NCBI GenBank assembly: GCA_012932295.1
Contig: JAAONU010000018.1
Span: 6,318,206 to 6,382,205, forward strand
DNA: 64,000 bases
Direction of reading: 5' to 3'
Origin: Cyclina sinensis
Lineage: Eukaryota; Mollusca; Bivalvia; Venerida; Veneridae
Below are positions 211 through 32,989 of the stretch, piece after piece. A model generated the notes under the pieces. It was not told where the DNA came from and ran no database searches. It saw only the letters and a program-made list of their open reading frames with translations. A program made the translations under genes and the position numbers. Every line of letters starts with the position of its first letter. Within the stretch, counting starts at the first letter, position 1.

Positions 211-911
211 CTTTCTTTGCAAAAATTCAATGTCAGCTTCAAAGTATTGGCTTGTGGTATTGTTTATAACCTCAACAACTACTGCCGTACAAGCTCTAAT
301 GCCCGATGTTGGAAGAACACTTCTACGATCTAAGAGGGCATTCATTAGACTAGATTTTCCCGACCCTGTCTCACCAACCACAGCTATCACAGTCTTTGGA
401 GACTCAAATCTCTTCTCGATATCTGTTAGTTCTTGTCTGGTGGAAATAAGTTAAATACATTTCCTATGAATTATGTTACTGATGTACTGTATTACTATGC
501 TACTATCATGCAAAATTTTTATAAAGATTTGTTACAAAAATTTCACAGATAAGTTCTTTTCCCAGGCACACTTAATAGCCTACAGTCTGCAGCTAGGGCA
601 TTCACATTTTAAATCAATTAATGTGCTTTCCATATCAAAACAATGTTCAATCTTAACAATATAACATTTTATAAAATACTGTTCATCATCATGCTTTCAA
701 CTTGAGAATTTTCATGCATGAAAATCAGTTAAAAAGAGATCATACAATATTTTCAAAGAAAGAAAAACAACGTTTAACACTAATTAAAGAACTACATGTA
801 TTTCTTTTAATGAAATATCAAATTTACCTCCATGCCACAACTCTTGGATTCTGCCTGAGTGACATATTATCTTCAAGCATAGCTTTCATTTTGTTGACAA
901 CGGAACGGCAA
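211..911 (-). other. GTPase-encoding exons (N-terminal helix, P-loop)
   Basis: Exon 828-911 begins one base after an AG acceptor and encodes CRSVVNKMKAMLEDNMSLRQ and on. Exon 211-436 encodes RQELTDIEKRFESPKTVIAV, then GETGSGKSSLMNALLDRR, PTSGIRACTAVVVEV and EADIEFLQRK, with donor GTAAGA. G1 (GxxxxGKS) is intact and a conserved Thr sits where G2 is expected; G3 and G4 would be beyond the left edge. The 'ESPKTVIAVVGETGSGKSSLMNALL' type of segment is characteristic of SLIP-GC-like large GTPases in invertebrates. Confidence 0.8.
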
Positions 912-3900
912 CTGCATAAATGAACATATACAATATTTACTTAACAGTAAAAGATCTGAAAGATAACACAGCAGAAGTAATTAAGAAACAAGAAAAGTAC
1001 AAGAAAAGTAATTCATTTCACAAAATTCAGCAGAATACTTGTATCACATTTGTTTTGTTTCAGTTTTTTCATCACTACATTTTAAAAGAAAGTCTATGTA
1101 AATACATCATTATTTTATTTTACCTATTTACGTGTTTGTCTACATCTTCCAGTACTGCAAGTGCTTGGGACTTTTCTCTGTTTTCAGTACGACTATATAT
1201 TATTTCAGTAGACTCCCTGGCGCCCTCTACAGGACTCGATGATGGAAAATCATCTCCTGCCTCCTCTTTTATACGTCTTTTCGCCCATAACTTCTCCAGT
1301 AAGTCTTTAGCCTTGCTTCTAGAAGCTTTTGGTTTTGAAGTATCTCTTGCCTTAATCTCTAACTGTTCTGTGACCCTGGTAGCTTGGGTTGCTGTCAGAC
1401 TATCTAAATCTGGTGTCTGGGAACTGTTCATTAACTGAGTAGAGGAAAGGTGTTCAGGCGAAGGCACTGAAGATACTGGTGTTTTACACTTTTCGGAACT
1501 ACGGATAAATGATGGAGTTTTGAAAGGTGTTACTGAAGATTTTGTTTCTTTCTGAGGTGTTGACAGACTTGAACATCTTAACCAAGTATTATCTTTTCTC
1601 TTCTTTGCTGACCCCTCATCATCTTCAGATTCATTTTTTCTTTTTGTTAATAATTTACTTTCTTCATGTCTGTCTTCTGCATATTCATCAGTAACATCAA
1701 CCACATCAGGTTTCTTATTCATAGAAACTTCTATAGTTTCTTTTTCAGATTCACTGTCACAGAAGTCAAAATCTAAGTCTACCGTATCCTTCTTTCCTCT
1801 CTCTGTTTCCTGGTCAGTACTTTCATTGTCACCTTCATCTTCAGTTTCCTGATTCAGGAAATTTTCTAGTGGATCACTACTGTAACCATCTGAAATACTG
1901 GTTTCTGGCTTCCAACCTGTATCAGCTGTTTTGCCATTATCACTACTGTAACCATCCGAACTACTGGTTTCTGGCTTCCAATCTGTAGCTGCTGTATTGC
2001 CATTATCACTAGTATTCTCACTTCCATTTCCATCTAGGTCTGTGGAATTTTTTACACCAGGAAGATCCATATCATTGGTATCATAATCAATGATTGTAGT
2101 CTTTGAATGTTTAGCATTAATAGTCTTATTAAGACCATTATCTGCAGTGATCAGGTTTTCTGTCCTCTTTTGTTCAGTGGTAACCTCTACAATACTACTT
2201 TCGCTATCTGTATCATCTTCATTTTCATCATCACTTGTATCATTTCCAATTAAACCCTCATCATTTTGGACAGAATATATATCACTCTCGCTACTATCTT
2301 CAACAACTTCATCTCCACTATCATCCAAATGACTAAAATCTATTTCTGGTGAAACAAAGCAATCTTCATCATCAGAGAATCTACAACTTAACTGGCTTGA
2401 AACCTCCTCCTTGTCTCCTTCCTTCTGAAAGAGCTGGACAGCACAGCTGTTTGTCTTAGCTACATCTGACCTGCTGTGGTTTGATACTTCCTGCTTTGCA
2501 ATTATTGGTGACTGTGACTGACTAGGGTCCAAAACCTGTAAATTAGTTTGTTGTGAAAATGCTTCAACATTAGGATATGCTTTGTCTGTAACACAACTGA
2601 TTTTTTGTTTATATGGTGATTTAAAACCTGACAACAGGAGACTAGATTTAATTACGCTCTCAGAATCTATTTCATTATCTGTTTGACACATACTTGATTC
2701 AGCCCTATCTACTTCTGCATCAGAAATTTGAAACTGTAAGCTAGAATTTTCATCATCAATAGGATCTTCAATGTCCTCTGAAACATCTGTCGTCTTAATG
2801 TCAGAAGTAGCTTCTTTCCCATTACAGCCTTCTGCTTCATTTACAATTCTTATTCCTTCCTGCAGTGAGTCATCAAAACCAATGTTACTGACATCCGTAT
2901 TTTCACCCTGTAACTGACCTTCTACATTTTTAGACTCTCCATTTTTCATTTCTTTTTCATCCGTGTCTGACTCATTTTCAGAAGCAGTAGTACCATCTTT
3001 ATTTTGATCTAGCTCACTACATATGTTTCTTGAACTTTCTTCCATACCCATGTGATTTATTTCATCTGGACGCTGAATTACTTCATCATTTCTGCACAGA
3101 CTATTTACATCAGTGTGCTGATAAACAGAAATGTCAGATATTTGCTCAGGGGCTTCCAGTTCAAGTAGTTTGTAGTCTCCTGCTGTGTCTTTCAAGTAAA
3201 TGTAACCTGCATTAGATGCTGACTTATCATTCAATTCATATGATTTCTTTGACCAGAACTTGAAAAATCGTTTCATTCCTTTCTTCAGGTTCTTCAATCT
3301 TTTTTGACTGGCTGTTAAACCCTTCTCTTCCAATTCCTCATCAGATTTGTCAACAGTCTCTCCTTCAAAAGCCTCTTCCATTTTTTCCTGCTTTTCAGTT
3401 TTACGGCTATAATTAATCATGCTACTATGTGCATTCTCATGAAAACATTGGTCCTCAGTTTCGGCCACAGATTCTTCATCTTCCACATGTTCACCAGAAC
3501 TTTGGACATTCAATAAAATGTTGGTTGTTTCACTACAATGTCTTTTCCTTTCAATCTCGTTAGCTATGTCATCAAATCCACATGACATTTTTCTCTTTCT
3601 ATGTACATCAGTCTTATCTGAGCATTTCTCTTGCTCGTTCTCACTTGTAAAATGCACTTCATTCTCTTTTGCAGTACCTTTGTATTCATCATCCTTTTTG
3701 TTTCTAGTGAAGTCCCCATCAAAATTTTCTGAATCTTCTGAACTATCTTGTTTTGCACTGCATTCCATTTCTTCATAACAAATTTTGTCATCCTCACCAG
3801 GTTTTCTGTTTAAATCAACAGAACTATGACTTAAGTTTGATTGACAACTTACAGGAACTTCTGTCTTCATCTCTTTCACTTCATCATCACTTTCTTTCTC

Positions 3901-6900
3901 AGACTCAGGGTTTCTGCATTGTGCATCCATTGTATCATCACTTTCAAAATCGCTCATGTGCCTCTCACTGTCATTGTCACTGAACTCTACAGAATTAGAT
4001 AACATCATACCTGGTGTTTCACCCTTCTCGTCCATGACTAAACTAGGAAGATCTAAAATCAATATGTCAGATGAATCACTTTCGTCAGTCGCTACCTTTT
4101 CATTTTGTTCTGTTTCAATATTATTATTGTCTCCATGTCCAATCAATACACATTCACGTTCATCCTCCTCTTCTTTACATTCATTCATCTCAAAAGTTGC
4201 TGAATTTTGTATGAAGTCACTTTTAGGAACTTCAGGAGAAACATCTTGCAAATCTGGATTTTGTTTCTCCATCACTTTGTTAGCAACTGCTAATGTAGAC
4301 AGAATATCATTGGACTGCTCAGTAATGTCTGAAATATTGTCTTTTTCCTCACTAGACGTGTCAGTGCATGAACAGACCGAGTCATCAGCATTTTCATTAC
4401 CTTCACGAGATGAATCAAGTTCAGCTTTAACCAAATTTTCTTCAACAGGTGCATTAGCTGGGTCAGTCATTCTAATGCATGCATGCAAAGACTCATCAGC
4501 ATATATAGCACGCTCAGTTTCCTCACTGACTTCCTCATTCAGATTGTCATTCACAGTCTCAATGTGAACAATATTCTCTACACTGCTAGGACCTTGCTCT
4601 GTAGCAATTTTTCCATTCACAGTTCTCCTACTTAATCTTGATGTTATTACCAAGCCCGTTTCATTGAAGTCTCCATCACTGTCTCCATCTTTATCTGTAT
4701 GTCCAGAGAACATGGCTTGACTTGTCTGAATCCCCATTTCTTTGGTTGGAGACACATATACCTGCTTTTTACTTTCACTGGCTACATCTACATCACACTG
4801 GCTTGTCTGTATGCTTGCATCTTTTGTGGGGGATTTTATTGGCATCGTATTAGTCAGCTGGTAATCTTTGGCGTTCTGAACTTCATTCTCTACTTCCCCT
4901 CTCAAGGCACTCAAATCATTCATAATAGAATGGAATGTTCCTTCAAGAGCTTTCAAGTCTTCTCTATCATCAAATGATGAGTCACCATTTTTTGTAGCCT
5001 TGTTCTCACGCTGAAGCAAACTGACATCAACCTTGTTTTGTTCATTTTCAATTTTGTTACTATGCCCTCCTGTATTTACTAGCTCATTCACTTTATTCAA
5101 TTCTGGCAGGTTATTATTCAAAGTATTTCCAACTGCTAGCTCTTCTATATTTGTCTCATCAGACTTGTAGCTGTCTTGACCTTTCACTAACCTTCTGGGT
5201 TGTTCTAAACCTTTAGATATACCAGTTTTGTTACTGTCTGGAGTTGCAATGGCTATCTTAACACTTGGTAAACCAGCTGCAGAAGTCGTCTCTGTGTCCA
5301 TGACAGTTGTCATATCTATTTGTTCATCACTACTTTCACTATTACCTTCCATATCAGAGATTTCAGATGCAGATCTATTACATTGCCTGTCTTCCCATGC
5401 CTTTTTCTGCAACAAAACAAAATGAGCAATGGAATGTTGACATTTAACTACACTCAAACTGTCAGTGAAGACAGATATATATAATCAGACTGATGTACAT
5501 AGAGTGGGACTGATGTACACAGAGTGGGAATGATGTATATAGTCTCCATGCATGGCTTGATCATTTAAAAACAGCTTTCAGTAATTTCCTTCACAAACTC
5601 CAGATATTTAGAAATAAATTATAGATTGAGCCCCGATGAAATTTGTAAAATGCATTAACTTACAAGTTGTCTAACATCGGCAGTTGAGAAGCACTGGGTC
5701 GTCTGTCGTGCAGCTCTCTTTGATTTCCTAGAGGATCTGCTGCCACTGCTCTCAGCTGGTGAAATAGGCTCCTTAAATCCACTTGCTTCCTGCATAAATA
5801 TAGTCCAGATAACATATATCTCACAGTAAACAATAGGCATTGTAGACTTGCTTCATAAGCATGCTTTAAACAGTAAGCTGTCACAAATACTCTGAAAGGG
5901 TGTGCTGAACAAAAAGACAGTGAAAAAATCTTTGAAAAGGCTAAGGAACTAAAATGTGCTTTAACAGGTTTCTAATTGACATGATGCATCAAAAATCTAA
6001 CATGGGTCTGTAACAAGTAAAAGGTGACATTATTAACAAAACTACTGCTGAAATTATACAAGTATATGTACTGCTGGTCACAAACCTTATTTTTCCTCTC
6101 AGTTCCTGTGTTCTTGTTCCTTCTCTCACAGCTGCACATTTCAAACTGCAAGTTATCAAAGCTTCATATGCATACAACCATTACATAACACCTTTACTTG
6201 TTTATGGAACTATCAACTTTAACTGAACAAGTTTCAGACTTTTCTAGATAAGGCTTGCAAAAGAAGTTCTTTTATTTTACCCATATTTTGGTTGTCAAAT
6301 ATATTAAATACATTGCAAACAAGAAATCGGTAGAACCAATGGATGCTCCCCGAATAAATGCCAATTCCAAAAGGGCTATTGTTTAATATGTATTTTTTTT
6401 AAAGTATGAAAAATAACAAAGGGCAATAACTCCTAAATTATGCAAAGTAGAGTTACGGTTCTTGCACGCTGCACTTCTCCTCATAGAGATCTATCTACCA
6501 AAAAAGTTTCATGCTAATATATCTTATACTTCGTGAGATATGCCCAGGATAAAAAAATAAGCATGAGAAGTTTCAAAAGGCAACAAGTCAAAAGTTAATA
6601 AAGAAGAGTTATGGTTCTATGGGATATAATATTCATTTGGTAGCCATAAACTTGCATGTTGTCTAAATTTAAAAGTCTTTCACATACCATAAACTGATTG
6701 TCAGAGTCAGGCTGACGTGATCGACTGCCTGCTGGGAGTCTGGCACCACAGGGATGCCCAAATGTTACCCTGTCTCCCTCTCGCAGCACACAACTTCCTA
6801 TCAAAAGAATGTTTATCAAACATTTGCAGGAACTTTGTTTTTTGTTAAACCTGGGTGTTCAATGGTTACAAACACTATATAAAGCATTTATTTTACCAGT

Positions 6901-8885
6901 AACTGAAACAGGAAATAGCTATTAAGATTTCAAAAACTGTTTGAAAAGTCCCAAATATTTGTATTTTCTGGTAAAAAATTTTTTTAAATGAATGTTTTTT
7001 GAGAAAAACAGAAAGTTTTGCCACTACTAACTTGCATTATATATTCATAGTATGCAGCATAGAAACTTTTCTTGAAAACAAGCAACTTTTCTCTATTAAA
7101 TAGAATATTTCATTTTGATTTCCCACTAGAAAAAAAAAAAAAAAACTTTCTGCATTTGCATGTCATTTGTTATCTGATCATAAATTATGTTATAAACATT
7201 TAACAAACAATGACAAACCTGCAATTTTTATATTGTTCACAAACACACCATTCAAGCTGTCATCATACAATCTATGCTGGTTCCCACTTTGTCTGACAAC
7301 ACGAGCATGGCAACGTGACAAACTGGCCGACTGTATATGATTACTAGAATCAATGTAAAAGTCCACCTGAACAACGCTCCGCCCTATCATGTATGTTACC
7401 CTGTAAAAGCTGAAACAAAGTGTTACTATAAAAATCATGGAACAACATTGGGCAAGCTCCAGAAGGGCTTACTGAGTGTTTTTTTTTTACACCTGTTGTC
7501 GACGGGATGGACACAGACAACTCAACCATGAAAATGGACTTGACACACTGATATATCTGTGCGACAATCTATAGAAATTTACCAATGTCTGAGTCGGTGA
7601 CCCCCAGTACATATTCCACACAACTACATTATGTACTGTGGGATAACTGACCGCAGATTATTTGTTTTTCATGAATATTTATTAGCAATGGGAAGTAACT
7701 CCTCGTCGAATGAGATTCCGCAATACAAACAGATACTCTTCAGTGAATAATGAGAAGTTACTGAAAATAGACATATTTCCCAAGATTTAAACATGGGCGC
7801 GAAAGGCAAATTGAAACGAGTACTTTCATTGGCTGAGATTGCGCAAGGGAAATCTTTCAGAAACCAATGAAAGTAGGTTACCAACCAACTGTCCCATGGT
7901 AGATAAATAGAGTGAAACGGAATGGATCGAACGTGGCTTTCCGACGATGTGTCTGAGTAAGAAATCATGTAATTAATTTCCACTATTTTTTTATACTTCT
8001 GGGTCAGATTTTGACTGAATTTAAGTTCATTTTCCCAGTTGCTTTTGATCTATAGTTCCTTGATAAACTTTTATTACAGTGTTAAACCTGTTTATCTATG
8101 CCAAAAATCCTATAAATGCCAATCATCTACATGACACATCTAAACTGTATCAAGGAGAGAATATTTGAAACTAAACAATCTTTTTAAAGATCATAGGAGC
8201 AGAGCTTAATAATCTTAACAAAAGAGACAATATATATATACAGCATGGAGGTGAAAGGTGTGTGTATGTGTTAGAGCGGGGTGAACATGTTATAGGCAGA
8301 GCTACATTGTTGCCACAAAAAAAACCTGCAATCTTGTAGGATTGAAAAAACAGCTGTCTGAGCCAAAATTACATGAAAAAAGAGCAAAACCTTGGGCAAC
8401 AATGCTTTAGATTATCACAAACATACTTTGCTATCTTTGCAAACTCTCTGCTAAGAGTTGGACAGACACAAATCAGGTCAGACCTGGTCAAATTTTGGCA
8501 GTCATGCCATTAATCAGACAATTTTTGGGAAGTCAGAATTCTGACAACAATATTAACAGCATCCGCTATATTTTTCACCCTTTAAATGAGATGCAATTTT
8601 AAAAACTAGATTTGGTCTACTGTTTTTACCTGTTACAATAGTTGTTGACCTTCAAGAAGAATGCATTTATATTTGACCAAATATATTTTAAACTTATGCT
8701 GTCATTCAAACTGCTATAACCATACAAATACATGCAGTAGCTATCATTTCTATTGTTATTTATAATTAAATCATTAAAACTTACTCCATGACACTGACGA
8801 CCCCATTCTTGCTGGCTGGTTTCCCAATCCGTCGAAGATGGTACATGGGCAGGCCATCCAAATTCAAATTTGATTGATCAGTCAT
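211..8885 (-). CDS. FHA-domain / long acidic linker / SLIP-GC-like nuclear GTPase, multi-exon, 3' end beyond window
   Basis: Eight exons are read on the minus strand: 8785-8885 (ATG at 8885), 7219-7400, 6688-6797, 6086-6145, 5664-5789, 1124-5406, 828-911 and 211-436. Every junction has GT/AG and phases agree, giving 5,172 nt or 1,724 codons without a stop; the 211 donor shows more exons lie to the left. Residues ~15-130 form an FHA fold (YMIGRS, SLSRCHARV, SLNGVFVNN, DRVTFG), closest in layout to TCF19. A basic NLS-like stretch follows (RKSKRAARQ), then ~1,430 residues of acidic, Ser-rich sequence, then a dynamin-type GTPase start with P-loop GETGSGKS and switch-like PTSGIRACTAV, as in NUGGC/SLIP-GC. 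FHA domains bind phosphothreonine and SLIP-GC is a nuclear GTPase, so a nuclear phospho-dependent role is inferred. Exon 1 carries 20 nt of 5' UTR after an AG acceptor (exon starts 8905), so an upstream non-coding exon is expected. It could be two genes, but the phases argue against that. Confidence 0.82.
1124..5406 (-). other. Giant 4.3-kb exon: acidic disordered linker with nuclear-type motifs
   Basis: One exon of 4,283 nt (1,427 codons plus AG) lies between acceptor tttgttgcag|AAAAAG and donor AATAG|gtaaaa. The product is dominated by Glu, Asp, Ser and Thr with few hydrophobic runs, so it is probably disordered. Visible motifs are DILILDL (SUMO-interaction type, near 4040-4085), basic NLS-like clusters (HRKRKMS, KKGMKRFFKFWSKK, SAKKRKD), repeated SPTK..IQTSQ motifs near 4717-4835, one SDTDE, and many CK2-type S-D/E-D/E sites. 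The last ~45 residues (EKSQALAVLEDVDKHVNS) look helical and run into the GTPase N-terminus. No other function can be assigned from sequence. Confidence 0.85.
1876..2010 (-). repeat. 66-bp in-frame tandem duplication in the giant exon
   Basis: Two head-to-tail copies of a 66-bp unit encode two near-identical 22-residue blocks (WKPETSSSDGYSSDNGKTA then GWKPETSISDGYSSD). The length is a multiple of three, so the frame is kept, and only a few substitutions separate the copies, so the duplication looks fairly recent. Confidence 0.8.
6360..6600. repeat. Fragment of tandem-core dispersed repeat in an intron
   Basis: The text 'gggcaataactcctaaattatgcaaagtagagttacggttcttgcacgctgcac' resembles the unit type at 18345-18835 (gagttatgg, gttcttgcacg, catcgtctcat). 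It lies in the intron between coding exons 3 and 4 of the FHA-GTPase gene. Only about one degraded unit is present. Confidence 0.4.
7795..7876. promoter_or_regulatory. E2F-type site next to paired inverted CCAAT boxes (candidate internal promoter)
   Basis: GGGCGCGAAA (7795-7804) matches an E2F site. A perfect 12-bp inverted pair, TACTTTCATTGG (7821-7832) and CCAATGAAAGTA (7864-7875), places two CCAAT boxes ~35 bp apart around TTGCGCAA-type sequence. It sits ~400 bp upstream of coding exon 2 of the FHA-GTPase gene. E2F plus NF-Y is common in S-phase promoters, but activity is only inferred. Confidence 0.3.
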
Positions 8886-9455: not shown

Positions 9456-10267
9456 TAGGGCTGTGTATCAGTCAGAATGATCGATACGATATATGTATCG
9501 ATACAAAATGATCTATATTCAATATACCATATGATATTTATAAAAACAAAAAAAACCATTAAACTGATTCATGATAAATATACCGGCAACTGATGGATGC
9601 GGTGAAATGTCTATTTTATGGGTTCTTCTCAAATGAGCAGCAAGGTTGGTGGTGTTTCCCCCCTTGCTTGTAACAGTTATTTGGCACAATTTACATAAAG
9701 CCCCATCTAAAGCTTTAGTAAAATACTGCCAAACTTTATTTTTTGGCAGTGGCATATTAAATTTATTATGATTATATCTATATATTATTATTTTCCCCTT
9801 ATATATGCAGACGATCTTTCGAACGTAATTATCTTCACACACGGAAAGTATTTTGTGCGTGAATAAATTCCATCCACGCCTTAACTCCTCAGTTTAATAA
9901 TATTAAATATATTGATCATTGACACAATTTAGTCGTCATCTATTTATTTGTCTAATTTTAAATGCCTGTTATACCTAAATATGAGTTATTTTGTATATTC
10001 GCAAATGGCAAAAACCTACCGTCAATACCTACAGACATCAACGGTTGTATTCCTGATAGTGGAATTGATCTTTTAGATCTGCTAAGTAATTGACTAATTG
10101 TCACACATTAAAATAAAAACGGCGCCATAAACAAACTGTCATAATGTAAACTTTAAATAACTTTGTTTTTCGTTCGATATTTTGACTGATACGGAAACGT
10201 TCGATACGATGTATCGAACTTCTTATACCGATATTCGATTTAAATTGAATACCGGTACGCACCTCTA
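9456..10267 (-). mobile_element. Short hAT element (812 bp) with 8-bp target-site duplication
   Basis: The ends are imperfect terminal inverted repeats: TAGGGCTGTGTATC on the left and TAGAGGTGCGTACC (complement) on the right. They are flanked by identical 8-bp duplications TTGGTAGC at 9448-9455 and 10268-10275, the size typical of hAT transposons. Subterminal copies of GTATCAGTCA..AT..TCGA occur in inverted orientation near 9464 and 10171-10194, and GATCGATAC/GTTCGATAC palindromes lie near both ends. Inside is one coding exon for a BED zinc finger; the catalytic RNase-H-like region is missing, so it cannot move by itself. Confidence 0.85.
9584..9755 (-). CDS. BED-type zinc-finger exon inside the hAT element
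   Basis: From an ATG at 9755 the frame reads MPLPKNKVWQYFTKALDGA and then CKLCQITV, LAAHLRRTHKI and SPHPSVA before a consensus donor (CCG|gtatat) at 9584/9583. The Cys-x2-Cys ... His-x4-His spacing and the leading aromatic VWQYF define a BED finger, the DNA-binding N-terminus of hAT transposases and ZBED proteins. The frame continues upstream without a stop to 9842, so the true start is uncertain. The donor has no visible partner exon in the element. It may be a stranded transposase exon or a source of exonised BED domains. Confidence 0.65.
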
Positions 10268-11378: not shown

Positions 11379-13520
11379 ACAAGAGGGCCATGATGGCCCT
11401 AGATCGCTCACCTGAGTATTTTGGCTGTAGGTTTGCTGTTCAGCAGTATTTCATGTTTAAATTGAAAATATGTAAGTAATGTAAATATAAATATGTAAAC
11501 ATGTAAAATATCAGTCAATAAATACAGGCTCTATGACAAAAAGTAGAAATATCTATCATAAGCTATGGTGACCTTGACCTTAACCCAGTGACCTCAAACC
11601 AACAGAATATAGGATCCATGCAGCGAAAATTTGCTGTAGCTATAAAACAAAAAGTAAGTCAAAAATATAGGTCATGCGATGACATTTTTGAAATGGGAAC
11701 AAAAAACTGTGCATACGGTCCTAATTTCATTGCCATAGTTCCAAAAACAAAAAGTAGGTCAGTGGGTCAAAAATATAGCTCATGCGATGACATTTTTGAA
11801 ATCGGAACAAAAAACTGTACACATGGTCCAAATTTCATTGCCATAGCTCCAAAAACAAAAAGTAGGTCATTCAGACAAAAATACAGGTCATCGATGACAT
11901 TTTTGAAATCAAAACGAAACCCCACGGGAGGGGGGATGACCCCACTGTGGTCACCGTGCATACTACCAAATATCTTAGCTCCAGACCTTGCAGTTTGTGA
12001 CAAGAAGATTTTAAAAGTTTTTTTGCTATATAACTCTATTTAAAACAGGTGACCTCTCGGGCGGGGCCAGTTTTGACCCAGGGGCCATGATTTGAACAAT
12101 CTTGGTAGAGGTCTACTAGACAATGCTCAACACCAAATATCTAAGCTCCACGCCTTGTAGTTTCTAAAAAGAAATTTTTTAAAGTTTTCCCTACATGTAT
12201 ATAACTCTATGTAAATAAAATAAGCCCTGGGCGGAGGTCAGTTCTGACCCCAGGGTCACAATTTGAACAATCTATGTAGAGGTCCACTAGATGATGCCTC
12301 ATACCAAATATCTAAGCTCCAGGCCTTGCAGTTTCTGACAAGAAGATTTTTAAAGAATTTACTATATAACTCTATGTAAAACATGTAATCCCTTGGGCGG
12401 GGCCAATTTTGACCCAGGGGCCATGATTTGAACAATCTTGGTAGAGGTCTACTAGACAATGCTACACGCCAAATATCTAAGCTCCATGCCTTGCTGTTTC
12501 TGATAAGAAGATTTTTAAAGTTTTCCTTATATAACTCTATGTAAATCAAGTGACCCCGAGGGCGGGGCCAGTTCTGACCCCAGGGTCATAATTTGAACAA
12601 TCTTTGTAGAGGTCCACTAGATGATGCATCATACCAAATATCTAAGCTCCACGCCTTGTGGTCTCAGACAAGAAGATTTTTAAAGTTTTCCCTATATAAC
12701 TCTATGTAAATCAAGTGACCCCCAGGGCGGGGCCAGTTCTGACCCCAGGGTCATTATTTGAACAATCTGTGTTGAGGTCCATTAGATGATGCCTCATACC
12801 AAATATCTCAGCTCCATGCCTTGCGGTTTCTGACAAGAAGATTTTTAAAGTTTTCCTTATATAACTCTATGTAAATCAAGTGACCCTCAGGGCGGGGCCA
12901 GTTCTGACCCCAGGGTCATAATTTGAACAATCTTTTAGAGGTCCATTAGATGATGCCTCATACAAAATATCTCAGCTCCAGGCCTTGTGGTTTCAGACAA
13001 TAAGATTTTTAAAGTTTTCCCTATATAACTCTATCTGAATCAAAAGACCCCCAAAGCGGGGCCATTTTTGACCCAGGGTCATGATTTGAACAAACTTGGT
13101 AGAGGTCCACTGGACAATGCTGCACACCAAATATCTAAACTCTAGGCCTTGTGCTTTCTGACAAGAAGATTTTTAAAGTTTTCCTATATAAGCCTATGTA
13201 AAATAAATTGACCCCCCCGGGTGGGGCCAAATTTGGCACCAGGGGCATAATTTGAACAAACTTGATAGAGGTCCACTAGACAATGCTACACACCAAATCT
13301 TAAGGCTCAGGGCCTTGTGGTTTCAGACAAGAAGATTTTCAAAGTTTTTCCTTTAAGTTGCCATAGCAACCAGAGTTCTTGATGGAATTGAATTCTTTGA
13401 ACAACTTTGGTAGAACTTCATGCAAGGAATATCCCAGGCATGTTTCATCATTGTTGGCTCAGCAGTTTAGGAGATATTGTTTAAGTCAAATTGTTGACAA
13501 TGCACGCCGCCGGACATTCA
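11379..13520 (-). mobile_element. Pearl-like tandem-core element, family A, copy 1 (truncated)
   Basis: It begins ACAAGAGGGCCATGATGGCCC, a terminus with a perfect GGGCCAT/ATGGCCC hairpin shared by several elements here, then TCGCTCACCTGAG. After a unique stretch come about nine tandem units of ~166 bp, each with CCAAATATCTAAGCTCCAGG, a 'gacaagaagatttttaaag' block and GGGCGGGGCCA. The other end stops in 'ccgccggacattc' and lacks the AGCTCACCTGAGC terminus seen at 45869. The copy is inverted relative to the one at 45869-48526. Confidence 0.75.
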
Positions 13521-14334: not shown

Positions 14335-16865
14335 TCAAGAAGCGCTGCAATGCAACGAAAACCAGGTTTTCAACGACCAAGTATTGATGTGACAGGAATT
14401 AGGAAAAAAATATGGCAGTGAAGAAAAAATGATGCTGTTCTTTTGGTACCAACACAGGAAGTTGGTTTCAATAGTTCACAAGGCAGTCTGAAGGACAGCT
14501 AAATCCCCTTCCGCAGCAGACATGAATATGTACTTCTTGACCTTTAACAAACCATGACCTTGATGTTGTGCCATGCATATTATAAGAACATAGTCTCATG
14601 ATAGTAATTATTTGTGCCAAGTTATTTAAAATCTTCCATAAAGTCAAAAAGTTATGGAGAAAATTTAAGCTTGACCTTGGGGTTAGCAACCTGGAAGTTG
14701 GGTTCTGCACACCATGTCATAGTGGTGATCACTTGTGCAAAGTAATTAAAAAACTTTTCGTAAGCCAAGTTAGTAAGTTATAGAGCAGATGTGAAATGTG
14801 GATATTTGACCTTTAGCTGTGACCTTTTCCTTGTGGGTAGCAACCCAATTATTGCGCTCTGCACATCGTCTCTTAATGGTGATCACTTGTGCCAAGTTAT
14901 TTGAACTTATTTCAAAAATTTTTTAGCGGTTGAAAGGTATGGAGCGGACACGAAATGTAGACTTTTAACACTTGACTTTTAAGTGTTACCTTGAACTTGG
15001 GCGTAGCAACCCAATTATTGTGCTCAGCACATCACTTCATAATGGTGATCACTTGTGCTAAGTTATTTAAACAAAATTTCAGCGGTTTAAAAGTTATGGA
15101 GTGGAAACAAAATGAAGACTTTTTAACACTTGACCTTTATGTGTGACCTTGACCTTGGGGGTAGCAACCCAATAATTGTGCTCTGCACATCGCCTCATAA
15201 TGGTGATCACTTGGGCCAAGTTATTTCAAAAAATTTTCAGCAGTTTAAAAGTTATGGAGCAGACACGAAAGTGTTACGGACGGACAAACGGACGGATGTT
15301 GGGTTCTGCACATTGTGTCATAGTGCTGATCACTTGTGCAAAGTAATAAAAAAACTTTTCGTAAGCCAATTTAGTAAGTTGTAGAGCAGACGTGAAATGT
15401 GGATATTTGACCTTTAACTGTGACCACGACCTTGTGGGAAGCAACCCAATTATTGTACTCTGCACATCGTCTTATAATGGTGATCACTTGTGCCAAGTTA
15501 TTTCAACAAATTTTCAGCGGTTTAAAAGTTATGGAGCAGACATGAAATGTACACTTTTTAACACTTGACCTTTCAGTGTGACCTTGACCTTGGGGGTAGC
15601 AACCCAATTATTGTGCTCTGCACATCGTCTCATAATGGTGATCACTTGTGCCAAGTTATTTCAACAAATTTTCAGCGGTTTAAAAGTTATGGAGCAGACA
15701 CGAAAGTGTTCAGATGGACAGACTGAGGAGGGGGATTAAAAAAAAAATATACCGGATACCTGTGTAGCAATGCCAGGCTGTATTTTCATGTAAGCTACAC
15801 ACATGCCAAGTTAAGTATCAATAGGTCAAAGTGTGCTGAAGTTATTGAGTAGAAGCTGAAAATTCTATTGTATGCAAGTGACCTTGACCTCGCTCCCAGA
15901 TATTTTAGTAGCAATCCCAAGCTGCATCTTAATATAAGCTACCCACACAGCAAGTTTGGTGTCAATAGGTCAACGCAAACTCAAGTTATTACGTGAAGAC
16001 TGACTTTCTTTTTAATTAAGAAACAGTGACCTTGTTCACAGACACCTGGGTAGCAATCACAAGTTGCATCTTGATATAAGCTACTAACATTCTAACTTTG
16101 ATGTCAATAGGTCTATGCAAACTCAAGTTATTAAGTGGAAACTGAATTTCTATTTTTAGCAACAGTGACATTTACCTTGATCACAGACATCTGGGTAGCA
16201 ATCCCAAGTTGTGTCTTGATATAAGCTACACACACCAAATTTGCTGTCAAGAGGTCACAGCTAACTCAAGTTATTGAGCGGAAACTGAATTTCTATTTTT
16301 AGCAACAGTGACCTTGACCTTTATCATAGTCACCTGGGTAGTAATCCTAAGTAGCATCTTGATGTAATCTAACCACGTACTAAGTTTGGTGTCAATAGGT
16401 CAAAGCAAACTGAAGTTATTGAGCAGTAACTTAATTTCTAATTTTAGCAACAATGACTTTGACCTTTTTCAAAGACATCTGGGTAGCAATCCCAAGCTGC
16501 CTTTTGATATAAGCTACCAATACACCAAGTTTAGCATCAATAGGCCAAAGCAAACTCAAGTTATTGAGCGGAAACAGAATATCTATTTCTAGCAAAATTG
16601 ACCTTGACCTTGATCACAGACTCCTTGGTAGCAATCTGGAGTAGCGTCTTGATATAAGGTACCCACACACCAAGTTTAGTGTCAATAGGTCTCAGCAAAC
16701 TGAAGTAATTACGTGAAAACTTAATTTCTATTTTTAGCAACATGGACCTTGACCTTGATTAAAGACATCTGGGTAGCAATCCCAAGCTGCCTCTTGATAT
16801 AAGCTACCCAGATAGTCCTGCGTCTATGGGCCAAGGCCAACTCAAGTTATTGAGCGGAAACTCAT
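14335..16865 (+). mobile_element. Tandem-core element, family D, copy 1, interrupted by family C
   Basis: The left terminus (gcgctgcaatgcaacgaaaa, with a GAAAACC/GGTTTTC hairpin, then 'aagtattgatgtgacagga') matches 55846-55985. After an inserted block of family C (14480-15735) it resumes at 'gatacctg' and continues as ~7 units of ~144 bp containing 'tagcaatcccaagctgc', 'atataagctaccca' and 'gtgaccttgacc'. The right terminus present in copy 2 (hairpin near 58762) is missing, so the copy is truncated. Confidence 0.7.
14480..15735 (+). repeat. Family C tandem array with a 600-bp higher-order unit
   Basis: About eight units of ~150 bp carry 'tgatcacttgtgccaagtta', 'agcggtttaaaagttatgg' and 'tgaccttgaccttgggggt'. 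Units starting GTTGGGTTCTGCACA at 14698 and 15298 are much closer to each other than to their neighbours and lie 600 bp apart, so a four-unit block was duplicated. Each block ends in a GGAC-type simple repeat (ggacggacaaacggacgg; agatggacagactgagg). Confidence 0.7.
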
Positions 16866-21490: not shown

Positions 21491-22484
21491 ATTATGCCCC
21501 CTCTTCAAAGAAGTGGGGGTATATTGCTTTGCAAATGTCTGTCTGTCGGTCGGTCCGACGGTCCGTAGACCAAATGGTTTCCGACCAATAACTAAAGAAT
21601 GCTTAAGCCTAGGAACTTCAAACTTGGTAGGATAATTGTCCATCACCAGTAGATGACCCCTATTGATTTTGGGGTCAAGGGGTCAAAGGTCAAGGTCACA
21701 TTGACCTTGTAGGTAGAAACGGTTTCCGACCAATAACTAAAGAACGCTTAGGCCTAGGGACTTCAAACTTGGTAGGATGATTGTCCATCACCAGTAGATG
21801 ACCCCTATTGATTTTGGGGTCAAGGGTCAAAGGTCAAGGTCACATTGACCTTGTAAGTAGAAACGGTTTCCGACCAATAACTAAAGAACGCTTTGACATA
21901 GGTTCACTAAACTTGGTATGCTAGTTGGTCATCACCAGTAGATGATCCCTATTGATTTTGAGGTCATTAGGTCAAAGGTCAAGATCACAGAAACCTTCAT
22001 CCTAAAAACGGTTTCCGATCAATAACTAGAGAATGCTTTGACCTAGGTTCACCAAACTTGGTATGCTGGTTGGTCATCACCAGTAGATGACCACTATTGA
22101 CTTTGAGGTCATTAGGTCAAAGGTCAAGATCACAGAGATTTTCATCCTTAAAACGGTTTCCGATCAATAACTAGAGAACGCTTAACGCTATTGATTTTGA
22201 GGTCATTAGGTCAAAGGTCAAGCTCACAGAGACTTTGACTCTAAAAACTGTTTCCGATCAATTACTAGAGAATGCTTTGACCCAGGTTCACCAAACTTGG
22301 TATGCTGGTTGGTCATGACCAGCAAATGACCCCTATTGATTTTGAGGTCATTAGGTCAAAGGTCAAGGCCACAGGGACCTTGATCCTAAAGACGGTTTCC
22401 AATCAATAACTAGAGAACACTTTGGCCCAACCACAAGCAATTAGGTGCTGCTGGGGGCATTTATGTTTTACAAACATTTCTTGT
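21491..22484 (+). mobile_element. Tandem-core element, family E, copy 1
   Basis: Left end ATTATGCCCCCTCTTCAAAG forms a short hairpin (GCCCCC..GGGGG) and leads into TCTGTCGGTCGGTCCGACGG. The core has about seven ~145-bp units with 'tttccgaccaataactaaag', 'ttcaaacttggtaggatga', 'ccatcaccagtagatgaccc' and 'aggtcaaaggtcaaggtca'. The right end has an ATGTTTTACAAACAT hairpin followed by CTTGT. Same orientation as the copy at 26351-27457. Confidence 0.8.
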
Positions 22485-23600
22485 ACTGATTTAGAATTGG
22501 TAGAAAGGATGCAGCTGCACAGTAAAGATGTCTAAGCTTGGGCTAGCTTGTAAAGACACAGGTAGAACATTCCACAGACGAATACTTCTGGGGAAAAATG
22601 AGTAAGAGTGAAACTGTGTCCTTGAGTATGGTATTAGGTAGTTCAGGTTTCTGTCAGATGGTAATGGTCAACCCTCACAAGATTGTGTTGGATTTTTTTT
22701 TTTGTATAGGAGAGTAACAGAGCTGATTTTACATCTCTGCTCTAAAAGTTGCCAATAAAGATCTTGTAACATTTTGGACACACTACTTGTGTAATTGTAC
22801 TCATTATATACATATCTGGCAGCTGATCTTTGGACTTGATCAATTTTATAAATGAGATATTTTGCCAAGGATACCAAACCGCGGAACAGTATTCTAACTG
22901 GGGCCTCACATAGGTTTTATAGGCAGTTTCTATTGCATTTTTGTTTGAAGTTTTGACATTTCTTTTTATAAATCTTAGTGAATTGTTGGCTTTAGCTGTT
23001 ATGTTATATATGTGATTTGTCCAGGAAAGACCTTTACATATTGTTACACATACATATTTAGCAGCCTCAGTTAATTTTAGTTCTTTACCATGAAGTTTAT
23101 AAGGAAATATAGGATGTTTCCTGCGGCTGATTCTAAGGATTTCACACTTATATCTGTATTAAATTCCATGGACCAATCAGAATCCCAGTTTTCAAGGCTG
23201 TTGAGATCTTTATGGAGGGTTTGGACATCTTTGGTGGATTTGATTGTAAGGTAAATTATTGTATTGTTTGCGAATAGTCTAACTTTTCCCTTGACACTGT
23301 CAGGGAGGTAATTTTTATATGAGAGGAAGAGGCAAGGACAAAAGACCCAGCCTTGAGGCACACCTGACAAGACGGATAGATTGTCAGAGTTTTGATCATC
23401 AACAACAACCTGCTGAATGTTACCATATAAGAATGACCTGGTCCATGGTCGAGATGACCTCAGAATTTAACACCTAGTCTATGTAGTTTAAGGAGGAGTT
23501 GGTGATAGTAGACTTTATCAAAGGCTTTACTGGAGTCCATAGCTTTGATATCAGTCTGTTGGCCTTGTTCTAAGTTGTCCTGGACTTCATTTGAGAAATA
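22485..23600 (-). pseudogene. Decayed LINE reverse transcriptase (jockey/CR1-like, C-terminal part)
   Basis: Broken minus-strand frames read as a non-LTR reverse transcriptase. They show 'SSKAFDKV' (motif A region, ~23520), 'SGVPQG' (~23365), a catalytic box decayed from F-A-D-D to FANNTIIYL (~23265), 'SLENWDSDWSMEFNTD' (~23170), and the C-terminal 'KIDQVQRSAARYVYNEY..SVSKMLQDLYWQLLEQR' type segment (22700-22850). Stops and frameshifts interrupt it and the two catalytic Asp are lost, so it is inactive. No endonuclease domain or 5' end is visible. Confidence 0.75.
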
Positions 23601-26350: not shown

Positions 26351-27457
26351 ATTATGCCCCCACTTCAAAGAAGAGGGGGTATATTGCTTTGCAATTGTCT
26401 GTCGGTCCGTCGGTCCGTAGACCAAATGGTTTCCGACCAATAACTAAAGAATGCTTAGGCCTAGGAACTTCAAACTTGGTAGGATGATTGTCCATCACCA
26501 GTAGATGACCCCTATTGATTTTGGGGTCAAGGGGTCAAAGGTCAAGGTCACATTGACCTTGTAGGTAGAAACCGTTTCCGACCAATAACTAAAGAACGCT
26601 TAGGCCTAGAAACTTCAAACTTGGTAGGATGATTGTCCATCACTAGTAGATGACCCCTATTGATTTTGGGGTAAAGGGGTCAAAGGTCAAGCTCACAGGG
26701 ACCTTCATCCTAAAAACGGTTTCCGATCAATAACTAGAGAAAGCTTTGACCTAGGTTCACCAAACTTGGTATGCTGGTTGGTCATCACTAGTAGATGATC
26801 CCTATTGACTTTGAGGTCATTAGGTCAAAGGTCAAGATCACAGAGACTTTCATCCTTAAAACGGTTTCCGATCAATAACTAGAGAACGCTTTGACCTAGG
26901 TTCACCAAACTTGGTATGCTGGTTGATCATCACCAGTAAATGACCCCTATTGACTTTGAGGTCCTTAGGTCAAAGGTCAAGATCACAGAGACTTTCATCT
27001 TAAAAACAGTTTCCGATCAATAACTAGAGAACTCTTAGGCCTAGAAACTTCAAACTTGGTAGGATGATTGTACATCACCAGCAGATGACCCCTATTGATT
27101 TTGGGGTCAAGGGGTCAAAGGTCAAGGTCACATTGACCTTGTAGGTAAAAAATGGTTTCCAATCAATAACTTGACAACCCATGCGCCGTTGACCCTCAAA
27201 CTTCATATCTGCATTTGTCTTGGCCAGTAGATGACCCCTATTGATTTTGGGGTCAAAGGTCAAGGTCACATGTATGTCAAAACAATTCAGACCAATAACT
27301 TGGCTACCAAATGGCATCGGGTTTTGTGGACTGTGAGACTTACATTTTAGACAACATGTATATTTGGTCACTAGGTCAAAAGTCAGTCACAATAATCTGG
27401 CCACATGACTAATTGGCTGCCGATAGGGGGCATACATGTTTTACAAACATATCTTGT
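26351..27457 (+). mobile_element. Tandem-core element, family E, copy 2
   Basis: It has the same termini as copy 1: ATTATGCCCCCACTTCAAAG at the left, ATGTTTTACAAACAT then CTTGT at the right, with a GTCGGTCCGTCGGTCCG block near the left. About seven ~145-bp units follow. Most units contain consecutive nuclear-receptor half-sites (aggtcaaaggtcaaggtca). Confidence 0.85.
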
Positions 27458-27830: not shown

Positions 27831-29554
27831 ACCTGTCACGTAGTGACAGAGTGAGCTTTTCTGATCACCTTTTGTCCGTCCGTCTGTGCGTCCGTCCGTC
27901 CATCCACAATTAGTTTGTTAACACTCTAGTGGTCACATTTTTGCCTCAGTTGTCATGAAACTTGGTCAGGATGTTTGTCTCATTAATATCTCGGACGAGT
28001 TAGAACATGGGTTATCAGGGTTGGAAAACTAGGTCACAGAGCCCAAATATAGAAAAACCTTGTTAACACTCTAGAGGCTACTTTTTCAGTCCAAATATCC
28101 TGGAAATTTGTCAGAAAGGTTCTATCGATGGTTTCTAGCTCAAATTCAAATATGGGTCATCTGGGTTCAAAAACTAGGTCACAGAGCCCAAAAATAGAAA
28201 AATCTTGTTAACTCTCTAGAGGTTACATTTTCAGACCAAATAATCTGGAAATTTGTCAGAAAGGTTGCTTTGAGGATTTCTAGGTCAAGTTTAAATATGG
28301 GAAATCTGGGGTCAAAAACTAGGTCACAGAGCCAAAATATTGAGAAACCTTGTTAACACTCTAGAGGTAACATTTTTAGCCCCAATAATCTGGAATTTTG
28401 TCAGAAAGGTTGCTTCAATGATTTCTAGCTGAAATTCAAATATGGGTCATCTGGGTTCAAAAACTAGGTCACAGAGCCCTTAAATAAAAAATTCTTGTCA
28501 ACACTCTAGAGGTGACATTTTCAGCCCAAATAATCTAGAAATTTGTCAGAAAGGTTGCCTTGAAGATTTCTAGATCAAGTTCGAATATGGGTCATCTGGG
28601 GTCACAAACTAGGTCACCGAGTCGAAATATGGAAAAACCTTGTTAACATTCTAAAGGTAGCATTTTCAGTCCAAATAACCTGGAAATTTGTCAAAAAAGT
28701 TCTATTAATGATTTCTAGCTCAGTTTTGAATATAGGTTTTCTGGGGTCAAAAACTAGGTCACAGAGCCCGAAAGTAGAAAAACCTTGTTAATTCTCTAGA
28801 GGTTGCATTTTTAGCCTTATTGTTCTTGAAATTTGTCAGAAAGGTTGTTTCAAGGAATTCTAGCTTAGATTTGGATATGGGTCATCTGGGATCAAAAACT
28901 AGGTCACATGGTCTAAATATGTAAAAAACTTTTTAACTCTCCAGAGGTTACATTTTCAGTCCAAATATCCTGGAATTTTGTCAGACAGGTTTTTTTGATG
29001 ATTTCTAGCTCAAGTTGGAGTATGGGTCATCTTGGGTCAAAAACTAGGTCACAGAGCCCAAATATGGAAAAACCTTGTTAACACTCTAGAGGTAACATTT
29101 TAATTCCAAATAACCTGGAAAATTGTCAGAAAGCTTAATTCTATTGTTTCTAGCTCAAGTTTGAATATGGGTCATCTGGAGTTGAAACATCTAGGTCACA
29201 GAGCCCAAATATCGAAAAACTTTGTAAACACTCTAGAAGCTACATTTTAAGTCCAAATGTCCTGGAAATTTGTCAGAAAGGTTGTTTTGATGATTTGTAG
29301 CTCAAGTTTGGATATGGGTTATCTTGGGTCAAAAACTAGGTCACAGAGCCTAAATATCAAAAAACCTTGTTAACACTCTAGAGGTAACATTTTCAGTACA
29401 AATAACCTTGAAATTTGTCAAAGAGATTGTTTCAATAATTTCTAGGTCAAGTTCGAATATGGGTCATCTGGGGTCAATTAACCAGGTCCATAGCAACTTT
29501 GTTAAAAGCAGTCATACTCAGGTGAGCGATACAGGGCCATTATGGCCCTCTTGT
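27831..29554 (+). mobile_element. Tandem-core element, family B, copy 1
   Basis: The left terminus, TTTTTAGCTCACCTGTCACG, is a hairpin (AGCTCAC..TCAC gta GTGA..GTGAGCT). It is followed by CCGTCCGTCTGTGCGTCCGTCC. About ten ~145-bp units with 'aaactaggtcacagagccca', 'cttgttaacactctagaggt' and 'gaaatttgtcagaaaggttg' make the core. The right terminus is CTCAGGTGAGCGAT, the GGGCCAT/ATGGCCC hairpin and CTTGT. Confidence 0.85.
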
Positions 29555-32695: not shown

Positions 32696-32989
32696 ATAGC
32701 CCGCCCGCTTAGCTCAATAGGTAGAGCACTGGATTAGTAATCCATCGGTCGTTGGTTCGACCCCTGGGCAGGGCAGAATTTCTCCGTGACAGTTGTTCTC
32801 AGACATTGCGTCTTATGTTTATTTGTCTCTCACCTCTGATTCAGAGTAGATCATGTGGGAACAGTAGTCAGTCACTTGCGGAGAAATGGGCAATTACTGG
32901 TTAGTTATCCAGGAAAACCGGTTAGGTGGACTGACCGCCGAGATATAACATATGTTGAAATCGACGTTAAACCCCCAAAAACAACAAAC
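32696..32989 (+). mobile_element. tRNA-derived SINE, copy 2, with 15-bp target duplication
   Basis: Same family as 20562-20860: A box TTAGCTCAATAGGTAGAGC, B box GTTGGTTCGACCCC, same body and A-rich tail. AAACAAAATTAACTG flanks it on both sides (32681-32695, 32990-33004), a target-primed (LINE-mediated) insertion hallmark. The unbroken duplication implies a young insertion. Confidence 0.88.

What the first reader, a model, noticed from the sequence alone, without database searches (positions are those of the whole stretch)
211..8885. FHA domain fused through a ~1,400-residue acidic linker to a SLIP-GC-like nuclear GTPase
Eight exons join in phase into one reading frame with an FHA domain at the N-terminus and a dynamin-type GTPase after a giant exon. 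As far as I know vertebrate NUGGC has no FHA domain and FHA proteins such as TCF19 or MDC1 have no GTPase. The last residues of the giant exon run directly into the GTPase N-terminal helix, so exon and GTPase belong together, and phases tie the FHA exons to it. This would be a phosphothreonine-reading large nuclear GTPase.
Basis: partly seen in the sequence, partly recalled or inferred. Interest (0 to 1): 0.8.

Follow-up and report, generated by a model that had tools for sequence, protein, structure and literature searches.

The report
Phosphothreonine-reader domain on nuclear-type GTPase
This clam gene encodes one giant protein that joins a domain which usually reads phosphorylated proteins to a dynamin-like GTPase through a long floppy acidic arm; the same build recurs in worms, amphioxus, sharks and reptiles, so it looks like an old protein design rather than a clam oddity.

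Summary
Confirmed, with corrections. On the minus strand eight exons join in phase into 1,727 codons without a stop: an FHA domain (Pfam E 1.7e-12), a ~1,460-residue acidic linker (mostly one 4,283-nt exon), then the start of a dynamin-type GTPase cut off by the window edge. Exon 2 starts at 7409. All seven junctions align ungapped to a Mercenaria protein. The fusion is not bivalve-specific: 57 of 192 fetched relatives (near-copies included) carry both domains, among them Capitella, bivalves, amphioxus, sharks, rays, a newt, turtles, squamates, alligator and tinamou; two are transcript-type sequences. Most phosphothreonine-pocket residues are near invariant; one (N of NG) is not. A relative's modelled GTPase resembles bacterial dynamin-like proteins and mitofusins. 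Eight of 16 examined relatives have a tail enriched in SUMO-acceptor-like sites. Likely mechanism (inferred): a phosphorylation-recruited dynamin-like scaffold, probably nuclear. No description was found in the searched library. Not MDC1 or TCF19 (no BRCT or PHD seen; SQ/TQ not enriched). The relation to mammalian NUGGC and TCF19 could not be tested.

The parts
8785..8885 (-). Exon 1 (start codon ATG at 8885; N-terminal part of the FHA region, residues 1-34)
   Evidence: in-phase join, GTAAGT donor; aligns to Mercenaria
7219..7409 (-). Exon 2, core of the FHA domain (GR, SRCH, SLNG, VNN); acceptor corrected from 7400 to 7409
   Evidence: Pfam PF00498; relatives read VMDFYRVTY or close variants across the junction
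6688..6797 (-). Exon 3, end of the FHA domain and the conserved extension GHP...RQP.S..FMF
6086..6145 (-). Exon 4 (FEMCSCERR..., last conserved FHA-extension residues)
5664..5789 (-). Exon 5 (basic stretch RKSKRAAR, then CFSTADVRQL)
1124..5406 (-). Exon 6, 4,283 nt: acidic linker without Pfam match; two SPTK(D/E)xxIQTSQ motifs, basic helix-like block LKKGMKRFFKFWSKK, block SKAKDLLEKLWAKRRIKEE
828..911 (-). Exon 7 (segment before the GTPase: SCRSVVNKMKAML...VVAW)
211..436 (-). Exon 8, start of the dynamin-type GTPase with P-loop GETGSGKSS and PTSGIRACT; gene continues beyond the window start
   Evidence: Pfam PF00350 E 5.5e-08

Best explanation
This is one gene, the counterpart of Mercenaria LOC123549787, encoding a giant protein with four parts: N-terminal FHA domain, long acidic linker, dynamin-superfamily GTPase of SLIP-GC/DUF7605 type, and (in relatives, beyond this window) a C-terminal tail that in many bivalves and amphioxus bears SUMO-acceptor-like sites and a terminal SIM-like motif. 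From its distribution I infer that the architecture was present in the common ancestor of bivalves, annelids and vertebrates. How it most likely works (inferred): the FHA domain docks on a threonine-phosphorylated nuclear partner, the linker gives reach, and GTP-driven pairing or oligomerisation of the GTPase heads clusters or remodels the bound complex, with the tail tying it to SUMO-rich assemblies in those invertebrates. Shown: gene structure, domains, recurrence of the fusion, pocket residues, a predicted dynamin-like fold of a close relative. Inferred: phosphothreonine binding, nuclear location, clustering, any role in genome maintenance or immunity.
Against: No transcript of this species was seen. 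The own genome could not be searched, so the rest of the gene is inferred from relatives. The pocket asparagine (N87 here) is T, S, R or K in 45 of 60 rows, so ligand choice may differ or binding may be lost, above all in deuterostomes. Sixteen of the 72 proteins from the first two searches lack a detectable FHA, among them both hemichordates, coelacanth, lungfish, a long Haliotis model and three algal proteins; at least two look like models that start too late (Argopecten P0009, B. lanceolatum P0020). Of the 120 from the third search 117 lack it, including short Mya, Haliotis, Mytilus and Sinanodonta copies. Inside Bilateria the tree does not follow the species tree: vertebrates split off first and amphioxus and hemichordates group with protostomes (98%), perhaps a long-branch effect. 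SUMO-site enrichment is missing in 8 of 16 relatives, among them Capitella and the five vertebrates examined, and the tail of the window's own protein is unseen. [ST]P enrichment is not clear in Dreissena (z 1.7), Potamilus, the oysters (z up to 1.6), amphioxus (1.8) or the vertebrates. The AF2 model of a Mytilus FHA protein was poor (mean pLDDT 41).
Confidence: 0.7

Rival explanations
1. Two neighbouring genes: an FHA protein and a separate SLIP-GC-like GTPase, wrongly joined by reading across.
For: No cDNA of this species was available. Mytilus coruscus and M. edulis models P0006 and P0007 show the FHA without a scored GTPase, and short FHA-less GTPase copies exist in bivalves.
Against: Phases fit at all 7 junctions and homology is continuous across each. 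The fusion appears in several phyla, in one Trinity ORF and one 15.7-kb Logan contig.
Confidence: 0.03
2. A specific version of the scaffold model: an MDC1-like DNA-damage scaffold in which a GTPase takes the place of the BRCT repeats; FHA reads damage signals, ATM/ATR phosphorylates the linker, and the GTPase assembles foci.
For: N-terminal FHA plus long acidic linker. Mammalian SLIP-GC is described as a nuclear GTPase of AID-expressing germinal-centre cells (titles and citing passages only). A small local cluster STQL..SQTPD..ATQ is kept in part in clams (sequences).
Against: SQ/TQ sites are not enriched in the linker: 11 against 10.9 in shuffles, and z lies between -1.3 and 1.6 in the 16 relatives. 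No BRCT match in Mercenaria, Mactra, Mya or amphioxus.
Confidence: 0.2
3. An innate-immune or mobile-element-restricting nuclear GTPase, like Mx or GBP proteins in logic, with FHA as the kinase-controlled switch; duplicates expand and shed the FHA.
For: Long-branched FHA-less copies in Haliotis, Mytilus, Sinanodonta and a second Mercenaria gene; dynamin-superfamily fold with Mx among the matches.
Against: No expression data; most FHA-bearing copies of bivalves and vertebrates have much shorter branches.
Confidence: 0.2
4. The FHA is a structural remnant that no longer binds phosphothreonine; the protein is a plain large GTPase scaffold.
For: The N of the NG pair is replaced in 45 of 60 rows.
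Against: G, R, S and H of the pocket and the SxxG..VN frame are kept in 57 to 60 of 60 rows, apart from V91, which is V in 53 and I in 7; loss of function would not be expected to leave them so constant. The clam keeps NG.
Confidence: 0.15

Closest known systems
Long FHA-bearing 'uncharacterized' / 'nuclear GTPase SLIP-GC' database proteins (Mercenaria LOC123549787, Branchiostoma lanceolatum NUGGC, Sceloporus undulatus SLIP-GC)
   Same: Same domain order FHA, long linker, Dynamin_N, DUF7605
   Different: Predicted proteins in databases; I found no paper that describes the architecture. The clam FHA keeps NG where the deuterostome rows shown have TG, SG or RG
SLIP-GC / NUGGC (mammalian nuclear GTPase of germinal-centre B cells)
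   Same: Dynamin-type GTPase family; database names of the relatives point to it
   Different: Mammalian NUGGC is recalled as about 796 residues without FHA; its sequence was not retrieved, so descent from the FHA form is untested
TCF19
   Same: Has an FHA domain; an alligator fusion protein is named 'transcription factor 19' by its source; TCF19's FHA has no known ligand (PMC13114050, passages)
   Different: 345 residues with FHA and PHD finger, no GTPase named there; no PHD seen in the present family
MDC1
   Same: N-terminal FHA and long acidic region (recalled)
   Different: MDC1 ends in BRCT repeats (recalled); here a GTPase; no SQ/TQ enrichment
Bacterial dynamin-like proteins (BDLP, SynDLP) and mitofusins
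   Same: Predicted fold of the GTPase half of a relative: G domain, neck and helical trunk
   Different: Those act on membranes (recalled); here FHA, acidic linker, and long helices inserted after the G4 motif

Membership tests
FHA domain | Profile match above Pfam's cut-off | tested here: met
   PF00498 48 bits against cut-off 20.7
FHA domain | Pocket residues GR, SxxH, SxNG, VN (motif recalled) | tested here: met
   G43 R44 S65 H68 S85 N87 G88 N92 in the window; across the 60-row alignment these are kept in 57-60 rows except N87, in 15
FHA domain | Binds phosphothreonine peptides | not testable with these tools
   needs a binding assay
SLIP-GC / NUGGC GTPase family | Dynamin_N profile match | tested here: met
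   PF00350 33.5 bits against cut-off 27 on the truncated window part; 54.2 bits in Mercenaria
SLIP-GC / NUGGC GTPase family | G1, G3 and G4 motifs intact | tested here: inconclusive
   G1 in the window; G3 and G4 lie beyond the window; in Mercenaria DLPG 1882 and TKTD 1948
SLIP-GC / NUGGC GTPase family | DUF7605 region after the GTPase | tested here: inconclusive
   beyond the window; present in Mercenaria E 1.1e-11 and in Mactra, Mya and amphioxus
SLIP-GC / NUGGC GTPase family | Nuclear location | not testable with these tools
   only basic stretches such as RKSKRAAR and KRKNESEDDEGSAKKRK
SLIP-GC / NUGGC GTPase family | Orthology to mammalian NUGGC | not tested
   no row named as mammalian among the lists (one search lists the best 120 of 187)
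MDC1 | BRCT repeats at the C-terminus | tested here: not met
   tested on full-length relatives: no BRCT in Mercenaria at E up to 0.1, nor in Mactra, Mya or amphioxus at E up to 0.01; the window's own C-terminus is unseen
MDC1 | SQ/TQ cluster | tested here: not met
   11 against 10.9 expected from shuffles
TCF19 | PHD finger with FHA | tested here: not met
   no PHD in Mercenaria, Mactra, Mya or amphioxus; none listed for the window parts (where 25 of 37 matches of one part are shown)
Dynamin superfamily, BDLP/mitofusin-like fold | G domain with neck and helical trunk | tested here: met

The most novel reading that the evidence does not exclude
The ancestral animal SLIP-GC protein was a phosphothreonine-reading dynamin-like GTPase. 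Lineages such as mammals lost the fusion, and human TCF19 (FHA half) and NUGGC (GTPase half), both reported in germinal-centre cells (passages), are separated counterparts that still act together on phosphorylated chromatin. The fused form in clams, sharks and reptiles would then be the key to a lost partnership and would predict a TCF19-NUGGC interaction.
Probability: 0.12. Interest if true: 0.85.

Novelty: new variant of a known kind. Interest (0 to 1): 0.62.

Why it matters
It shows that a GTPase family known in mammals from germinal-centre B cells has, in many bilaterian animals, an attached phosphothreonine-type reader and a very long acidic arm. That gives a concrete hypothesis for what recruits this GTPase family (a kinase signal read by FHA) and predicts ligands and partners that can be tested in animals that keep the fusion. 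It also corrects the impression that the fusion is a clam peculiarity and raises the question of whether, when and why mammals lost it.

Tried and rejected
SQ/TQ cluster (ATM/ATR platform): rejected for this linker, 11 against 10.9 in shuffles.

Tandem LC8 (DYNLL) motifs at SPTKDASIQTSQ and SPTKEMGIQTSQ: two copies of this kind in the window, Mercenaria, Mactra and Mya; one Dreissena model (P0002) has one, the other (P0004) none by the pattern used; Argopecten has KDASIQTSP. They fit the anchor rules only loosely, and the three SIQT peptides in the passage I saw of PMC6607443 (DAZL, FMN2, TMV) were listed as non-binders. Kept only as a possibility.

Two-gene rival: rejected on junction homology and wide recurrence.

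Fold search with the FHA model of Mytilus P0007: not done, the model is too poor (pLDDT 41); residues 137 to 1035 were predicted without secondary structure.

The count of FHA changes on the trees (14 and 7) is blurred by gene models that begin too late.

PDB by sequence: the FHA finds only weak matches (best E 0.0035, Dun1) and the GTPase only weak ones (best E 0.00028, BDLP).

Literature: SLIP-GC with GTPase gave 14 papers, with neither term in a title or abstract; nothing for NUGGC with 'FHA domain' or SLIP-GC with bivalve; at least three of 'FHA domain', dynamin, 'large GTPase', 'nuclear GTPase' gave 3 papers, judged irrelevant from the search listing; one search gave 9, none of them primary. 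Searches were too broad to inform. The two primary SLIP-GC papers are not held, so they are known here only from citing passages. Of PMC9654647, PMC10912573, PMC6607443, PMC12187134 and PMC13114050 I saw passages.

Full report
Observation. The minus strand carries eight exons that join in phase without a stop, with GT at 8 of 8 donors and AG at 7 of 7 acceptors. Comparison with relatives corrected exon 2: the acceptor lies at 7409, giving VMDFYRVTYMIGR as in Mercenaria. The joined product has 1,727 residues and runs off the window start. The FHA domain scores 48 bits against Pfam's cut-off of 20.7 with either acceptor and the truncated GTPase 33.5 against 27; the giant exon has no Pfam match. 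A 1,427-codon open frame has a chance of about 1e-46 at this base composition.

One protein, not two. Mercenaria P0001 aligns through all seven exon junctions without a gap, with 9 to 18 of 20 residues identical around each. Five of the seven relatives of the first search carry FHA and GTPase in one model: Mercenaria, two Dreissena models, Mactra and Mya; the two Mytilus models show the FHA only. The second search adds Solemya, oysters, Potamilus, amphioxus, sharks, rays, a newt, turtles, squamates and alligator; the third adds Capitella, a tinamou and a Trinity transcript P0082. With an FHA profile, 59 of 192 fetched proteins have the FHA and 57 have both domains: 54 of 72 from the first two searches and 3 of 120 from the third; isoforms and near-copies are included in these counts. 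P0061 holds both domains in 4,963 codons on a 15,670-bp contig and matches newt P0062 at about 82% over two long segments, which by inference is spliced RNA.

History. On the GTPase tree the 25 bilaterian rows lie on one side of a 99% branch. Molluscs, hemichordates, amphioxus and vertebrates come out as groups there, and Capitella sits beside the molluscs; but their order is not the species order, since vertebrates split off first (98%), so the deep branching should not be trusted. The FHA tree shows similar broad groups with weak support (5 of 21 inner branches starred) and places the window beside Mercenaria at 83% identity. FHA-less SLIP-GC-like copies of Mya and Saccostrea sit inside the bivalve fused groups, so loss of the FHA after duplication, or a truncated model, is likely there. 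Sixteen of the 72 proteins of the first two searches show no FHA, both hemichordates, coelacanth and lungfish among them; Argopecten P0009 and B. lanceolatum P0020 look like models that begin too late. In the fungal, green-algal and diatom rows fetched the GTPase was found without FHA. P0082 as sister to Bilateria is not rejected (p-AU 0.265). No row named as mammalian is among the lists (one search shows 120 of 187), so the origin of mammalian NUGGC was not tested.

Anatomy. FHA: G43, R44, S65, H68, S85, G88 and N92 are kept in 57 to 60 of 60 rows, while position 87 is T in 40, N in 15, S in 3, R in 1 and K in 1. Linker: D+E 22%, K+R 11%; conserved blocks in the clams include a pair of SPTK(D/E)xxIQTSQ-like motifs, a basic block LKKGMKRFFKFWSKK and SKAKDLLEKLWAKRRIKEE before the GTPase. 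SQ/TQ pairs are not enriched. [ST]P pairs are enriched in the window (16 against 8.5, z 2.8), Mercenaria, Mactra, Mya and Solemya (z 2.5 to 4.7), less so in amphioxus (1.8), Dreissena (1.7) and Ostrea (1.6), and not clearly elsewhere among the 17 sequences; proline-directed kinases could act there. Linker length varies in that call from 214 residues in P0082 and 243 in Capitella to 3,624 in a shark. Most of Mytilus P0007 after its FHA was predicted without secondary structure at pLDDT below 50. GTPase: the model of Mya P0075 (pLDDT 80.2, pTM 0.78) matches bacterial dynamin-like proteins and mitofusins and has long helices after the G4 region. Tail (relatives only): [VI]KxE sites number 2 to 4 against 0.1-0.2 expected in 8 of 16 relatives, namely Mercenaria, Mactra, Dreissena, Mya, Solemya, two oysters and amphioxus; Potamilus has 1 against 0.4; Capitella, P0082 and the five vertebrates show 0 or 1. 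Eleven of the 57 fused proteins end in a SIM-like motif, all of them bivalve or amphioxus; four green-algal GTPases end similarly. That these are SUMO and SIM motifs is recalled knowledge of the consensus, not a test.

Mechanism. The best reading is a phosphorylation-recruited dynamin-like scaffold, probably nuclear: FHA docking on a phosphothreonine partner, a flexible acidic arm, GTP-driven pairing of heads, and in some invertebrates a SUMO-linked tail. Only the anatomy and its conservation are shown; ligand, location and activity are inferred. SLIP-GC in mammals is described in papers that cite the primary work as a nuclear GTPase of germinal-centre cells, with an expression pattern like that of AID (passages; the primary papers are not held). 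The DNA-damage and immune readings listed as rivals are narrower versions of this and overlap with it, so their odds need not add up with it to one.

Novelty. The protein exists in databases as predicted models, some named SLIP-GC or NUGGC, but the searches named under Tried and rejected found no description of the FHA fusion; most subscription journals are outside that library. I file it as a new variant of a known kind.

Noticed in passing
window 11964-13352, 14907-16810, 21572-22422, 26424-27268, 27998-29477, 46114-48127, 56066-58706: Many tandem arrays, most with units of about 145 to 166 bases, with similar unit sequences recurring in separate arrays; by eye the unit at 27998-29477 looks like the reverse complement of that at 56066-57409.
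   Followed up: no
window 60130-61880, minus strand: Exon-like ORFs of a lecithin:cholesterol acyltransferase family protein (PF02450, E 2.4e-16 for one piece, 0.0049 for another).
   Followed up: partly
window 9519-9893, minus strand: BED zinc finger (PF02892, E 7.1e-09) just upstream of the FHA exons, perhaps from a transposon.
   Followed up: partly
window 23077-23466, minus strand: Reverse-transcriptase fragment (PF00078, E 1.7e-05, below the curated cut-off).
   Followed up: no
window 32703-32774, plus strand: tRNA-Thr gene with anticodon AGT.
   Followed up: no
window 1873-2011: A 66-base, hence in-frame, tandem duplication of 2.1 copies inside the giant exon.
   Followed up: no
P0068, P0070, P0071, P0171 (green algae): SLIP-GC-type GTPases of green algae without FHA also end in VIDLT-like tails, as clam and amphioxus proteins do; possibly an old shared C-terminal motif.
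   Followed up: no
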